A stretch of DNA of 64,000 nt from Leifsonia aquatica (GTDB taxonomy: Bacteria > Actinomycetota > Actinomycetes > Actinomycetales > Microbacteriaceae), in NCBI RefSeq assembly GCF_014190775.1, contig NZ_JACHVP010000001.1, positions 1,922,001 to 1,986,000 of the forward strand, given 5' to 3'. The notes beneath the pieces are model-generated. The model searched no databases. It saw nothing but the letters and a program-made list of their open reading frames with translations, and was not told where the DNA came from. The position numbers were made by a program, and so were the translations under genes. Below, piece after piece: positions 47,913 through 51,700 of this stretch; position 1 is the first letter of the stretch; each line of letters opens with the position of its first letter.

Positions 47913-48902
47913 TCAGTGCCCGGTGGACGCCTTCGCGTTCGACTCGTACGAGGTGTTGGTCGACTCGAAGAAGTTGACCAGCTCGAGGGTGTCGTTGGCG
48001 GTCGCCATCCACTTGGCCGGGTTGGAGACCTTGTACTCAGCCTCGAACCCCAGCTCCTCCAGGCGACGGTCGGCCAGGTAGCGGACGTACTGGTTGATGT
48101 AGTTCGCGTTGAGGCCCAGGATGCCGCCCGGCAGGAGGTCGCGGTTGTACTGCTCCTCCATCTCGACGGCGTCGAGGATCATCTGCCGGATCTCGTTGGC
48201 GAACTCCGGCGTCTGCAGGTCGGGGTTCTCCTCGAGGACCGTGAGGATGAGGTTGATGCCGAACTTGAGGTGCAGCGACTCGTCGCGCACCACCCAGTCG
48301 ATCAGCGAACCGAAGTTGCGCAACAGGTTCCGCTGGCGGAACGAGAGCGCGACCATGAAGCCCGAATAGAACCAGATGCCCTCGAGGATCACGTTGTACG
48401 CGACGAGGTTGCGGATGAAGTCCTGCTTGCCCTCGGTCGTCGTGATGTCGAGGGTCTGCTCGGTCATCCGCTTGATGAACTGGACCTCGAACTCCTCCTT
48501 GCGGGCCATCGACGGCACGTCGACGTGGGAGTTGTAGGCCTGCTCGCGGTCGATCGGGAACGTCTCGAGGACGTACTCGAACGACATGCAGTGGTTCGCC
48601 TCCTCCCACATCTGCTTGGCGAGGTAGAGGTGCGCCTCGGCCGCGTTGATGTAGGGGTAGACGCCGAACGCGAGCGCCTTGTTGACGAGGAGCTCGTTCG
48701 GGTTGAAGTAGCTCATCAGGAAGGTGACCGCGTGACGCTCCTCGTCGGTCATCTTCTTGAAGTCGGCGATGTCCTCACCGAGCTGGATCTCGTTCGGGAA
48801 CCAGGTGTTCGCGACGGCCTGGTCGTACAGGTCCATCGCCCACTGGTACTTCACCGGCTTGAGCAGCAGGCCCTCTTCGATCCCGGTACCCAGGATGCCC
48901 AT
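47913..48902 (-). CDS. nrdB: Ribonucleotide reductase small subunit, class Ic-like
   Basis: A 329-residue R2 protein. The six metal ligands read E70, E101, H104, E174, E208 and H211 (NPNELL, EEANHCMSF, ILEGIWFY, RDESLHL). Class Ia R2 has Asp at the first position and a radical Tyr three residues after the first His ligand plus one; here E101-x2-H104-x3-F108 places Phe exactly there. Glu as first ligand plus Phe at the radical site is the pattern of the Mn/Fe class Ic R2 of Chlamydia trachomatis. It therefore probably works without a tyrosyl radical. It is the third gene after nrdA and the tail ORF, 46 bases after the latter. Confidence 0.93.
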   Translation of the reverse strand: MGILGTGIEEGLLLKPVKYQWAMDLYDQAVANTWFPNEIQLGEDIADFKKMTDEERHAVTFLMSYFNPNELLVNKALAFGVYPYINAAEAHLYLAKQMWEEANHCMSFEYVLETFPIDREQAYNSHVDVPSMARKEEFEVQFIKRMTEQTLDITTTEGKQDFIRNLVAYNVILEGIWFYSGFMVALSFRQRNLLRNFGSLIDWVVRDESLHLKFGINLILTVLEENPDLQTPEFANEIRQMILDAVEMEEQYNRDLLPGGILGLNANYINQYVRYLADRRLEELGFEAEYKVSNPAKWMATANDTLELVNFFESTNTSYESNAKASTGH

Positions 48903-48948: not shown

Positions 48949-49029
48949 TTACTGGCAGGACTCGCACTGCAGGTCGTCCATCGGGTCGACCGGCACGTAG
49001 TACTCCTCGATCTTGGTGGCGGTGTTCAT
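48949..49029 (-). CDS. 26-residue CxxC peptide: detached NrdA C-terminal redox tail
   Basis: The ATG (49027-49029) overlaps the nrdA stop by one base (TAATG). Six bases before it lies GGAGGTGA (49043-49036), a perfect complement of the 16S anti-Shine-Dalgarno sequence. The product starts MNTATKIEEYYVP and ends DDLQCESCQ. A CxxC at the very C-terminus is what class I NrdA/NrdE proteins carry on a flexible tail to re-reduce their active-site disulfide and pass electrons from thioredoxin or NrdH. NrdA here ends after an Ala/Pro-rich linker without any cysteine pair, so the peptide supplies the missing tail. It may act in trans or be fused by occasional -1 frameshifting. Confidence 0.8.
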   Translation of the reverse strand: MNTATKIEEYYVPVDPMDDLQCESCQ

Positions 49030-51503
49030 TACTTGTCACCTCCCGAGAGACCTCCGAAGCCGAACCCGCGGCGAGCGGGGGCGGCGGGAGCCGGTGCGGC
49101 GGCGGGCTCGGCCGCGGCGGCCGGCGCACCGGCGCCGACGGTCGCGAAGCCCTTGCGGCCGCCCGAGATCTCCTCGGACTTGTTGACCTTGACCGTCGAC
49201 TGCTCGGCCTGGTGACGCGGCTTCATGTGGAGGTAGTACGTCGTCTTGACGCCCTTCTCCCACGCTGCGTAGTAGATGTCCATCATGTCGCCGAGGTCCC
49301 GGGTCTCCAGGTACATGTTGCGGCTGATGGCCTGGTCGATCCACTTCTGAGCGCGGGCCGCGACCTCGATGAAGGCGTGCGGCGAGAGCTGGAAGCTCGT
49401 CTTGAACGTCGCCTTGATCTCGTCCGGGATCGCAGCGATGCCCTGGATGTCGCCCTGCGAACGGAGGATGGACTCGCGCACGTCCTCCCACAGGCCACGC
49501 TCCTGGAGCGCGGCGACCAGGTTGCGGTTGACCTCGAGGAACTTGCCCGACGAGGTGGACCGGCTGAAGATCTGCGAGAACTGCGGGTCGAAGCCGGGGG
49601 TCGTGCCGGCCACGAGGCCGATCGACGCCGTCGGGGCGATCGCCATCAGGGTGGCGTTGCGCATGCCGCCCTTGACCTTCTCGCGCAGGCGGTCCCAGTC
49701 GAGGCGGATGGTGCGGTCCACGGTGATCGGGACGCCGCGGTCGGCCTCGGTGAGCGCGATCGAGTCGTAGGGGACGAGGCCCTTCGACCAGCGCGAGCCC
49801 TCGAAGTTCGGGTACGCGCCGCGCTCCTGAGCGAGGTCGGCGCTCTCGTCGATCGCCGCGTACGAGACGTGCTCCATGATCTCGTCGATCAGGGCGTACG
49901 CCTCCTCGCTCTCGTAGCTGAGGCCGAGTCGCTCGACGATGTCGGTGAAGCCCATCACGCCGAGGCCGATGGCGCGGTTCTGCTGGTTCGAGAAGTCGGC
50001 CTCGTCGACGCTCGACACGGTGATGTCGATGAGGTTGTCCAGCTGGCGGACCGCCTGGCGGGCGCTCTCCTCGATGCGGGCGAAGTCCATCTTGCCGTCG
50101 ACGATGTGACGGGAGAGGTTGATCGACGCCAGGTTGCAGACCGAGACGTTGTCGCGGTCCTGCGGCAGCGTGATCTCGGTGCAGAGGTTCGACAGGTGGA
50201 TGGTGCCGGTGTTGTTGTTGAGGGCACGGTTGTTGATCGTGTCCTTCCAGGTCAGCCACGGGTGGCTGGTGGTCTGGAGGCTCATCAGGATGTCCTTGAA
50301 CTGGGCGCGCGCGCTCATCTTCTTGAACATCACGATGCGGCCGGCCTCGGCCTCGTCGATGTAGTGCTGGTAGCGCTCCGAGAACTCCTTGCCGTAGAGC
50401 TCGTTGAGGTCCGAGACCTCCAGCGGGTCGAACAGGTACCAGTCCTGGTCGTTCTGGACACGCTTCATGAACTCGTCACTGATCCACACCGCGGTGTTGG
50501 CGGTGCGGGTGCGGCGGTAGGGGTCGCCGGAGTTCTGGCGCAGGTCCAGGAACTCCGGGAAGTCCATGTGCCAGTTCTCCATGTAGAAGCACAGGGCACC
50601 GAACTTCTTGCCGCCACGGCTGACCGCGCGCAGCACCGAGTCGATGGTGTGCATGAACGGGATCGGACCGGTGGAGGTCGTGTTGTTCGAGCGGATGGGC
50701 GAGCCCTGAGCACGCAGCTTGGTGACCGAGAGGCCGATGCCGCCGGTGCCCTTGGTGAGCCACATGACGTCGCGGACCGACTTGGCGATGTGCTCGATGT
50801 CGTCCTGCATCTCCATGACGAAGCAGTTGGAGAGCTGCGGGTACGCGGTGCCGGCGTTGACGAGCGTGGAGCCCGCGGCCAGGTACTCGAGCTTCGACAT
50901 CTTCTCGTAGAAGGCGAGGGCGTGGCTCGTCGGGTCGGCCTCGTTGAGCGAGAGGCCCATCGCGATGCGCATCCAGAAGTACTGGGGCACCTCGAGCGAG
51001 TCGCCGTTGCGGGCCTTGATGCCGTAGCGGTTGTTGAGGGTCACGACGCCGATGTACTTGAGCAGCTCGTCGCGCGACGGGTCGAGCGCGGAGGAGAGGC
51101 GGTCGAGGTCGAAGAGCTGGGTGAAGCGGGAGTCGAGGAGGGTCTCGGCGACGCCGCGCTCGACGTACGCGCGGAAGTGCGAGCCGTGGAGGGAGACGAG
51201 CTCCTCGAAGTCGGCGTAGTCACCGAGGACGCGCTTGTAGATCGTCTTGAGGAGGAGGCGTGCGGCGACGGTGTCGAACGCCGGGTCGTCCTTGACGTTC
51301 TGCAGGGCGACCTGGATGACGGCCTCGTCGAGCTGCTGGGTCGTGATGCCGTCGAAGAGAGTGAGCTCGAGCTCGCTCGCGATCTGGGTGACCCAGGTGA
51401 TGTTGTCGTCCAGACCCTGGGCCGCCGTCTCGATGGCCAGGTTGATCTTGTTGGCGTCGTACGGCTCGCGCTCGCCATTCCGCTTCACGACGGTGATTGG
51501 CAC
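49029..51503 (-). CDS. nrdA: Ribonucleotide reductase large subunit, class I with ATP cone
   Basis: An 824-residue alpha subunit reducing ribonucleoside diphosphates. An N-terminal ATP cone (VVKRNGEREPYDANKINLAI, about residues 5-95) provides activity control as in class Ia. The catalytic set is C227 (QLSNCFVM), N439, C441 and E443 (LSNLCTEI), C456 (VSVCNLAS) and the radical-transfer pair Y756-Y757 (TTYYLHMKPR). After about residue 780 comes an Ala/Pro linker ending GFGGLSGGDK with no cysteines; the usual tail is the separate ORF that overlaps the stop. The start is a GTG with GAGGGAGAG upstream. Leader and promoter region hold NrdR boxes and a structured RNA. Confidence 0.95.
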   Translation of the reverse strand: MPITVVKRNGEREPYDANKINLAIETAAQGLDDNITWVTQIASELELTLFDGITTQQLDEAVIQVALQNVKDDPAFDTVAARLLLKTIYKRVLGDYADFEELVSLHGSHFRAYVERGVAETLLDSRFTQLFDLDRLSSALDPSRDELLKYIGVVTLNNRYGIKARNGDSLEVPQYFWMRIAMGLSLNEADPTSHALAFYEKMSKLEYLAAGSTLVNAGTAYPQLSNCFVMEMQDDIEHIAKSVRDVMWLTKGTGGIGLSVTKLRAQGSPIRSNNTTSTGPIPFMHTIDSVLRAVSRGGKKFGALCFYMENWHMDFPEFLDLRQNSGDPYRRTRTANTAVWISDEFMKRVQNDQDWYLFDPLEVSDLNELYGKEFSERYQHYIDEAEAGRIVMFKKMSARAQFKDILMSLQTTSHPWLTWKDTINNRALNNNTGTIHLSNLCTEITLPQDRDNVSVCNLASINLSRHIVDGKMDFARIEESARQAVRQLDNLIDITVSSVDEADFSNQQNRAIGLGVMGFTDIVERLGLSYESEEAYALIDEIMEHVSYAAIDESADLAQERGAYPNFEGSRWSKGLVPYDSIALTEADRGVPITVDRTIRLDWDRLREKVKGGMRNATLMAIAPTASIGLVAGTTPGFDPQFSQIFSRSTSSGKFLEVNRNLVAALQERGLWEDVRESILRSQGDIQGIAAIPDEIKATFKTSFQLSPHAFIEVAARAQKWIDQAISRNMYLETRDLGDMMDIYYAAWEKGVKTTYYLHMKPRHQAEQSTVKVNKSEEISGGRKGFATVGAGAPAAAAEPAAAPAPAAPARRGFGFGGLSGGDK

Positions 51504-51648
51504 GTTCTCTCCCTCTTCGCACTGCCGTCAACCCGAGTGGCGGCATGGTCGTGCACCGGCTCCCTCGAAGGGCTGGTCCGGCGCTGTTTCCCCGTGGATC
51601 GAGCCGCAGCGAGGCGATTTCCGCGTGCTGCGGCGATCCGTGTTTGAC
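51504..51648 (-). ncRNA. Structured 5' leader of nrdA (possible regulatory RNA)
   Basis: About 140 bases separate the likely promoter from the nrdA start. On the minus-strand RNA, a stem of 6 plus 7 base pairs (GGAUCG and CCGCAGC pairing with GCUGCGG and CGAUCC, 51639-51596) is followed by a CGCCGG/CCGGUG stem around a CCCUUCGAGGG hairpin, then UGCCG/CGGCA near the start codon. The pieces GCCGGUGCACGACC and GCCGCCACU recall parts of cobalamin riboswitches, which control nrd genes in Streptomyces, but the conserved core is incomplete, so I do not assign it. The rest of this 309-base intergenic region holds the boxes listed separately. Confidence 0.4.
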
Positions 51649-51662
51649 CACTATATAGCGGG
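51649..51662 (-). promoter_or_regulatory. NrdR box 1
   Basis: On the minus strand the 14-mer ends TATATAGTG and matches the NrdR box in 11 of 14 positions (consensus CACWATATMTWGTG). Its centre is 32 bases from box 2, about three helical turns, the usual spacing for NrdR pairs. TATAGT within it may also be the -10. Confidence 0.65.
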
Positions 51663-51680
51663 GTGCCGACATTTCCATCC

Positions 51681-51694
51681 CCCCATATCTAGTG
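51681..51694 (+). promoter_or_regulatory. NrdR box 2
   Basis: CCCCATATCTAGTG matches the NrdR consensus in 12 of 14 positions. It pairs with box 1 at 32-base centre-to-centre spacing. Confidence 0.68.
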
Positions 51695-51700
51695 GGCGTG

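What the first reader, a model, noticed from the sequence alone, without database searches (positions are those of the whole stretch)
48949..49045. NrdA redox tail encoded as a separate, translationally coupled 26-residue gene
Seen: NrdA ends ...GGLSGGDK with no C-terminal cysteine pair; the stop TAA overlaps an ATG (TAATG) that opens a 26-codon frame ending DDLQCESCQ; a perfect GGAGGTGA site lies six bases before that ATG, inside the nrdA 3' end. Known: class I alpha subunits need a C-terminal Cys pair on a flexible tail to re-reduce the active site, and the tail can serve the neighbouring subunit. Inference: here the tail is a free peptide acting in trans, or is joined by low-level -1 frameshifting at the stop. 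A detached RNR tail peptide is, as far as I know, not described. Sequencing error is the dull alternative, though the perfect ribosome binding site argues against it.
Basis: partly seen in the sequence, partly recalled or inferred. Interest (0 to 1): 0.85.

Follow-up and report, generated by a model that had tools for sequence, protein, structure and literature searches.

The report
Detached ribonucleotide reductase tail peptide gene
In a family of soil, water and plant bacteria, the short end-piece that recharges the enzyme making DNA building blocks appears to be made from its own tiny gene instead of being attached to the enzyme, and viruses and plasmids of these bacteria carry copies of that tiny gene too.

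Summary
The window's NrdA (49029-51503, -) lacks a C-terminal cysteine pair; a 26-codon frame (48949-49029, -) overlaps its stop and ends DPMDDLQCESCQ. It is no error: 0 of the 120 nearest listed NrdA proteins have a cysteine in the last 70 residues, and 90 distinct related loci carry the separate tail frame. Its frame relative to nrdA varies (76/9/5) and pN/pS is 0.28, so it is a translated peptide, not a frameshift extension. Demequina and Cellulomonas orthologues carry the motif fused (116 of 120). Tail and this NrdA co-occur in 70 of 70 family genomes. At least 50 of these 70 hold an unlinked tail gene under the same NrdR-like operator as nrdA; in the window's genome that operator pattern occurs exactly twice. 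Five genomes have only unlinked copies, so the tail must act in trans. Microbacteriaceae plasmids and phages carry stand-alone tail genes; 0 of 50 tail-bearing phage records tested encode an RNR alpha subunit. Best reading: a detached, separately regulated, mobile redox tail that recharges NrdA in trans. Biochemistry is untested. Split class II NrdJa/NrdJb is the nearest precedent.

The parts
49029..51503 (-). nrdA: class I RNR alpha subunit (ATP cone, all-alpha and barrel domains) with cysteines C227, C441, C456 at active-site positions but no C-terminal cysteine pair
   Evidence: cysteines by alignment to 5im3_A, positions checked; ends GFGFGGLSGGDK
48949..49029 (-). detached RNR tail gene, 26 codons, MNTATKIEEYYVPVDPMDDLQCESCQ; start overlaps the nrdA stop (TAATG)
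   Evidence: found in 90 distinct related loci with pN/pS 0.28
49036..49043 (-). GGAGGTGA Shine-Dalgarno sequence inside the nrdA 3' end, 6 bases before the tail ATG
   Evidence: only 10 of 90 relatives have a match of 7 bases or more
47913..48902 (-). nrdB: class I RNR beta subunit, downstream of the tail gene
51680..51695 (-). box 1 of a NrdR-like operator upstream of nrdA (CCACTAGATATGGGGG)
   Evidence: pattern match (G000:C1:1973649-1973694)
51648..51663 (-). box 2 of the NrdR-like operator (CCCCGCTATATAGTGG), 16 bp after box 1
   Evidence: same pattern at the unlinked tail gene, G000:C3:434880-434926

Best explanation
The 26-codon frame is the redox-active C-terminal tail of class I NrdA, split off as its own gene in an ancestor of this Microbacteriaceae NrdA clade. 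It is made as a free peptide (21-57 residues by my choice of start codons) that binds the tailless NrdA, reduces the active-site disulfide after each turnover with its CxSC pair, and is itself re-reduced by thioredoxin or another redoxin. One copy is translationally coupled between nrdA and nrdB. An unlinked copy stands alone under the same NrdR-like operator as nrdA, so peptide supply can be set separately. Phages and plasmids of these hosts carry their own copies, most simply to raise the host's dNTP output. Shown by sequence: split, conservation, clade, co-occurrence, shared operator, unlinked-only genomes, mobile copies. Inferred: binding, electron transfer, redoxin partner, benefit to phages.
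For: Homology: Demequina- and Cellulomonas-type NrdA, 71-75% identical to the window's, end with the same motif fused, e.g. CPVDPMERLQCESCQ, in 116 of 120 listed proteins and in all 15 such loci fetched. Detached: 0 of 120 listed proteins with Cys in the last 70 residues; 29 such rows form one side of a branch, support 100, against 32 rows with a fused tail seen (quick tree). Coding: pN/pS 0.28 in frame against 2.3 and 3.4 in the other frames; the motif used to pick tails missed none, since the loci without it were read and have no tail. Co-occurrence: 70 of 70 family genomes with this NrdA (some as fragments) have the tail; of 80 others, one 77%-complete genome has it and two give weak hits. 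In 61 of the 70 this NrdA is the only RNR alpha match, in a search that elsewhere found about 30%-identical RNR alphas at about 1e-44 (at most six candidates scored a genome). Regulation: operator in 65 of 150 genomes, all 65 with this NrdA, 110 sites, reversed control 0; 60 before nrdA, 47 before an unlinked tail gene, the other 3 too. NrdR is encoded. Trans: G150, G151, G152, G053, G015 have no linked tail but an unlinked one. Mobile copies: 19 plasmid records, all Microbacteriaceae; phages CN1A, CMP1, phiPsal1; 333 viral-contig stretches, 80 kept; no RNR alpha in 50 records tested. Precedent: NrdJb does dithiol exchange in trans (PMC4520616).
Against: No biochemistry, proteomics or structure of the complex. 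Peptides this short may bind weakly or be short-lived; the N-terminal part is variable. The AlphaFold2 model of a fused orthologue is of low confidence and shows no firm docking. Several phage copies lie by lysis genes or beside terminase or portal genes rather than among replication genes, which a dNTP-supply role does not predict. One Demequina-like NrdA (P0204) ends like the detached form, so the split may not be confined to one clade, or that entry is a chimera. Hits in single plasmid and phage records have weak E-values (1e-3 to 0.5).
Confidence: 0.9

Rival explanations
1. The tail is joined to a fraction of NrdA by programmed -1 frameshifting, hopping or readthrough at the nrdA stop.
For: 76 of 90 linked tails lie in the -1 frame, and 64 of 90 start at the nrdA stop.
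Against: 9 of 90 lie in frame after the stop and 5 in the +1 frame; each frame has an ATG or GTG before the core; five genomes have only unlinked tail genes; the three phages and two plasmids looked at have no annotated nrdA within 4 kb, and 50 phage records have no RNR alpha.
Confidence: 0.03
2. The short frame is a leader peptide or coupling device for nrdB translation, or a peptide with another job (regulator, metal carrier), and not the RNR tail.
For: It sits between nrdA and nrdB; three phage copies follow lysis genes.
Against: Protein-level selection, the same motif fused at the end of orthologous NrdA, presence with tailless NrdA in 70 of 70 and near-absence without it, and unlinked copies followed within 150 bases by terminator-like repeats, not nrdB (by eye).
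Confidence: 0.05
3. Sequencing error or a decayed nrdA in this one genome.
For: A one-base frame difference in a single genome would look like this.
Against: The same split in 90 distinct loci from many assemblies, with varying frames and spacers.
Confidence: 0.005
4. For the phage copies only: the peptide is a competitor or decoy that blocks or redirects host RNR rather than a booster.
For: Some phage copies sit in late or structural gene regions.
Against: The three named phages keep both cysteines and the PxDPMD core; so do the 76 of 80 viral loci matched, though there the motif was the criterion; one phage contig also carries an nrdB right after its tail gene; of four plasmid regions looked at, two have the tail near a single-strand-binding protein, one near ParA and one near conjugation genes.
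Confidence: 0.15

Closest known systems
Split class II RNR NrdJa/NrdJb of Pseudomonas aeruginosa (PMC4520616; abstract, introduction and discussion read)
   Same: The redox-active C-terminal piece is a separate polypeptide from the same operon and mediates dithiol exchange in trans; both parts are needed in vivo.
   Different: Class II and B12-dependent; NrdJb has 229 residues with folded domains (IscU-like and zinc finger, per passages of PMC9669993), not a peptide of about 26 residues; no stand-alone co-regulated second copy or phage-borne copies reported in the sections I read. That paper calls the split NrdJ the only split RNR found in a non-viral organism.
Split NrdA of Aeromonas phage Aeh1, nrdA-a/nrdA-b (passages of PMC3653736 and PMC2988022)
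   Same: A class I alpha subunit made as two polypeptides that work together.
   Different: [quoted passage not shown] here there is no insertion and only the tail is detached.
Class I NrdA of Demequina and Cellulomonas
   Same: Orthologous core and the same CPxDPMExLxC(E/D)SCQ end.
   Different: Tail fused through a linker, mostly long; one extra cysteine where the detached tails have valine.
Phage-encoded RNR genes as auxiliary metabolic genes (passages of PMC3653736)
   Same: A phage supplying part of the dNTP machinery.
   Different: Those phages encode RNR subunits; here only a short tail peptide is carried (one contig also has nrdB) and no alpha subunit was found in 50 records.

Membership tests
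Class I RNR alpha subunit (NrdA) | ATP cone, all-alpha and barrel domains | tested here: met
   Pfam PF03477, PF00317, PF02867 above cut-off; NCBIfam NF005101 1687.9 bits; best solved relative 5im3_A E 2.3e-200
Class I RNR alpha subunit (NrdA) | Three active-site cysteines | tested here: met
   C227, C441, C456 align with cysteines of 5im3_A; the same columns invariant in 60 sequences. That these are the active-site three is recalled from E. coli NrdA.
Class I RNR alpha subunit (NrdA) | C-terminal cysteine pair on the same chain | tested here: not met
   No Cys after 456 in the window protein and none in the last 70 residues of 120 relatives; supplied by a separate frame
Split RNR with redox tail in trans (NrdJa/NrdJb-like) | Cys pair on a separate polypeptide derived from the C-terminus | tested here: met
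   Fused in sister families, detached in this clade
Split RNR with redox tail in trans (NrdJa/NrdJb-like) | Class II barrel and folded NrdJb domain | tested here: not met
   NrdA scores below the cut-off of the class II model TIGR02504 (382.5 against 399.95) and is followed by nrdB; the peptide has 26 residues
Split RNR with redox tail in trans (NrdJa/NrdJb-like) | Dithiol exchange and binding shown biochemically | not testable with these tools
Programmed ribosomal frameshifting | Constant frame relation across relatives | tested here: not met
   Frames 76 / 9 / 5 of 90
Homing-endonuclease-split nrdA (Aeh1 type) | Insertion between the two parts | tested here: not met
   Chosen start overlaps the nrdA stop in 64 of 90 and lies at most 29 bases beyond it
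NrdR regulon | Pair of 16-bp boxes with a 14-17 bp spacer, and an NrdR gene | tested here: met
   Spacer 16 bp before nrdA, 17 bp before the unlinked tail gene in L133 (by eye); NrdR gene at C1:1577756; box rules from passages of PMC12051234
NrdR regulon | NrdR binds the boxes | not testable with these tools
   The consensus letters used to place the boxes are recalled; no binding test

The most novel reading that the evidence does not exclude
In this clade the RNR tail is an exchangeable, dosage-controlled activator: the cell sets dNTP synthesis partly by supplying tail peptide from an NrdR-controlled stand-alone gene, and phages and plasmids boost the host's tailless RNR with a peptide of roughly 20-30 codons, the smallest auxiliary metabolic gene of this kind that I know of (recalled, not searched systematically).
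Probability: 0.7. Interest if true: 0.93.

Novelty: new variant of a known kind. Interest (0 to 1): 0.88.

Why it matters
RNR is the route to new dNTPs, and its tail is usually viewed as an intrinsic part of the catalytic chain. Here a whole clade appears to live with it as a free peptide, in 61 of 70 sampled genomes with no other RNR alpha detected. This gives a natural two-component system to test how the tail docks, whether it limits the rate and whether it serves either protomer. It also points to mostly unannotated genes of about 20-30 codons with a likely essential role, and a way for phages and plasmids to influence host dNTP supply without carrying a whole RNR.

Tried and rejected
Frameshift, sequencing error, homing-endonuclease split and leader-peptide readings were tested and set aside. 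The perfect Shine-Dalgarno as the main argument was dropped: strong in only 10 of 90. A first version of the script had a wrong motif and gave no rows. The first tree labelled rows by search set; two of its fused rows (P0173, P0204) show no C..C end, so I rebuilt it without them and without the long row L164 (same result). AlphaFold2 of a fused orthologue (P0121, 60 rows) reached only mean pLDDT 66.9; the last 20 residues scored 59-65 against 32-44 for the linker, too weak to claim docking, and no fold search was run. The idea that the 316-aa gene after the tail in L224, L225 and L229 is nrdB was wrong: no Pfam match. Pfam on the 93-aa proteins of L128 and L129 gave nothing useful. Literature (listings with abstract starts only): searches showed no detached class I tail; the library is open-access only, and one search listed 20 of 36,516 loose matches. 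CN1A's announcement (PMC3853054, whole text) mentions no RNR gene.

Full report
What is there. On the minus strand lie nrdA (49029-51503), a 26-codon frame (48949-49029) and nrdB (47913-48902). NrdA is a complete class I alpha subunit by domain and by alignment with 5im3_A, a solved ribonucleoside-diphosphate reductase, including cysteines at 227, 441 and 456, but it stops at GFGFGGLSGGDK without a terminal cysteine pair. The 26-codon frame opens with ATG overlapping the nrdA stop and ends VPVDPMDDLQCESCQ.

Conservation. Two searches gave 109 related loci (L003-L111). L069 has no nrdA 3' end. Four have no tail frame just downstream: L018, L042, L044, and L066 at a contig end. 104 have it; 14 were dropped as identical over 200 bases, leaving 90. 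The tails were picked with the motif [VI]PxDPMxxxxCxxCQ, so the fixed letters of that motif are invariant by construction; but the loci that failed it were read and hold no tail, so no deviating tail was left out. V (where the motif allowed V or I) and S between the cysteines (left free) are the same in 90 of 90. pN/pS over the last 16 codons is 0.28 in frame and 2.3 and 3.4 in the two other frames (77 distinct codon strings). The frame relation to nrdA is -1 in 76, 0 in 9, +1 in 5; the chosen start overlaps the nrdA stop in 64. Of the 120 nearest NrdA proteins listed by the protein search none has a cysteine in its last 70 residues.

Origin. In a sample of 248 genomes of the order, the tail profile matched 16: the window's own genome, and 15 others in which the match lies in a long open frame of 873-1098 residues. 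Reading these 15 loci shows the motif fused to the end of NrdA, e.g. ...CPVDPMEALQCESCQ. The families are Demequinaceae and Cellulomonadaceae, inferred from named proteins on contigs of the same length. More distant NrdA (L161-L165) end ...CPVDPQERLQCEACQ or similar. Of 120 listed proteins nearest to one of these, 116 end fused; P0159 is marked partial, P0173 and P0191 look frame-shifted, and P0204 ends like the detached form. A tree of 61 rows puts the 29 detached rows on one side of a branch with support 100, one change, against 32 rows with a fused tail seen (quick method; one origin is not ruled out rather than proved). P0204, which falls among the Demequina rows, is an exception: a second split, a transfer or a chimeric assembly.

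Co-occurrence. In 150 genomes sampled from the family, 70 have this NrdA (some as fragments) and all 70 have the tail; of the other 80, G113 (77% complete) has a tail, and G133 and G141 give weak hits (E 0.0085 and 0.001), likely noise. In 61 of the 70 the NrdA search found one RNR alpha match only; in four of the other nine (G022, G039, G054, G124) the two matches look like pieces of one gene (counted by eye). The same search finds about 30%-identical RNR alphas elsewhere at about 1e-44, but it scored at most six candidates a genome and some genomes are incomplete. The window's own genome has a second RNR alpha, 29% identical and not classified here, which keeps its own end GCVSCML.

A second, unlinked tail gene. 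Many of these genomes hold more than one tail gene; the window's genome has seven matches. One, at C3:434989, stands alone and has the same upstream architecture in 15 of the 20 regions fetched (the other five are further copies of the window's genome): a CACTACATGTAGTG-like box, a spacer, then TATATAGTG or close to it. The region before nrdA has the same pair. By a loose TATATA criterion 83 of 86 distinct nrdA upstream regions have it, though two of the 83 (L029, L093) matched elsewhere; nine loci gave no start. As a pattern it occurs exactly twice in the window's genome, before nrdA and before this tail gene, with 0 for the reversed pattern. In 150 family genomes it occurs 110 times in 65 genomes, all with this NrdA, reversed control 0 in all 150; 60 sites lie before nrdA, 47 before an unlinked tail gene, and the last three also precede tail genes that the truncated list had not shown. 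So at least 50 of the 70 genomes have an operator-bearing unlinked tail gene. Five of the 70 (G015, G067, G083, G097, G131) have no exact match; the unlinked tail genes of G015, G067, G097 and G131 have diverged versions (by eye), and G083 was not looked at. An NrdR gene is present. The spacers, 16 bp before nrdA and 17 bp before the tail gene in L133, fit the 14-17 bp range described for NrdR (PMC12051234, passages); the consensus letters are recalled and NrdR binding is inferred.

Action in trans. L018 (Naasia lichenicola), L042 and L044 lack the linked tail, but their genomes G150, G151 and G152 carry an unlinked one; G150 has a further weak hit (E 1.8e-4) on what by its length is the nrdA contig, but hundreds of kilobases from nrdA. 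G053 and G015, 100% and 98% complete with a single RNR alpha match, likewise have only an unlinked gene, on another contig and about 33 kb away. In these the tail cannot reach NrdA by frameshift or readthrough.

Mobile copies. tblastn found the tail in 19 plasmid records: 15 Clavibacter, 3 Leifsonia, 1 Gryllotalpicola (family), and in five phage records: CN1A and CMP1 (each twice) and phiPsal1, whose hosts are Clavibacter and Pontimonas. E-values of single records are weak (1e-3 to 0.5) because the query has 26 residues; the reading rests on the intact motif at the end of a short frame. A degenerate scan of viral contigs gave 361 stretches, 333 confirmed, 80 kept, some of them near-duplicates. 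In 76 of the 80 the script found the motif at the end of a frame; that frame is open over at most 100 codons in 62 and longer in 14, where I did not settle the start. None of 50 records tested (47 viral contigs and the 3 phages) has an RNR alpha domain; the control search rang in 11 of 14 genomes. Many contigs are fragments, so absence is not proof for each, but CN1A, CMP1 and phiPsal1 are deposited as complete. Among 50 mechanically picked upstream neighbours 4 match a terminase and 4 a holin family; among 40 downstream ones 4 match a portal family. In L237 the tail gene is followed by an nrdB. Of four plasmid regions looked at, two have the tail near a single-strand-binding protein, one near ParA, one near conjugation genes.

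Mechanism. For other RNRs it is established that a C-terminal cysteine pair re-reduces the active site, and NrdJb of P. aeruginosa does this as a separate polypeptide needed in vivo (PMC4520616; abstract, introduction and discussion read). The simplest account here is the same chemistry with a much smaller partner. That the peptide binds NrdA and turns it over is inferred. The conserved VPxDPMD stretch is a candidate docking part; it is inherited from the fused form, where a cysteine stands in place of the valine. The low-confidence model gives no docking site.

Novelty. Split RNRs are known, so this is a new variant of a known kind. The size of the piece, its separate NrdR-like control and its carriage by phages and plasmids did not appear in the listings (open-access library, titles and abstract starts seen). 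PMC4520616 (2015) calls the split NrdJ the only split RNR found in a non-viral organism.

Noticed in passing
G000:C3:434880-435060 (L124): Stand-alone tail gene with its own NrdR-like operator and, by eye, a GC-rich inverted repeat with a T run downstream; outside the window.
   Followed up: yes
L126, L127 (G000:C6:116806 and C2:45186): Two similar loci where the tail frame follows a small gene that looks excisionase-like by eye. Among 18 proteins scanned from L125-L129, single Pfam matches include a phage integrase, an IS110 transposase and ParA, suggesting mobile elements.
   Followed up: partly
L128, L129 (G000:C6:39218 and C8:15561): The tail motif forms the C-terminus of a 93-aa frame with an unknown N-terminal part: a tail fused to something other than NrdA.
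   Followed up: partly
L169:3977-4078 (NZ_CP065038.1): NCBI names the 33-aa plasmid tail peptide WP_223361114.1 'ribonucleotide-diphosphate reductase subunit beta', a misleading name; nearly all other plasmid copies are under 'hypothetical protein' or no listed feature.
   Followed up: no
L237:2191-3448 and L234: Phage contig with a tail gene followed by its own nrdB; the 65-kb contig L234 with the same tail shows no RNR alpha.
   Followed up: partly
phages CN1A, CMP1, phiPsal1 (L166-L168): In all three phages the tail gene lies in or just after the lysis (holin/endolysin) region, which a dNTP-supply role does not explain.
   Followed up: no
window 49029-49200 (NrdA C-terminus): A short (R/K)(R/K)GFG(FG) motif recurs in the NrdA linker and near its stop, and is also repeated in fused orthologues; possible docking or spacing element.
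   Followed up: no
P0204, P0173, P0191: P0204, a Demequina-like NrdA, ends ARRGFGGLAPRADSSSAGA like the detached form; P0173 and P0191 end in what looks like a frame-shifted tail. Could be independent splits, transfers or errors.
   Followed up: partly
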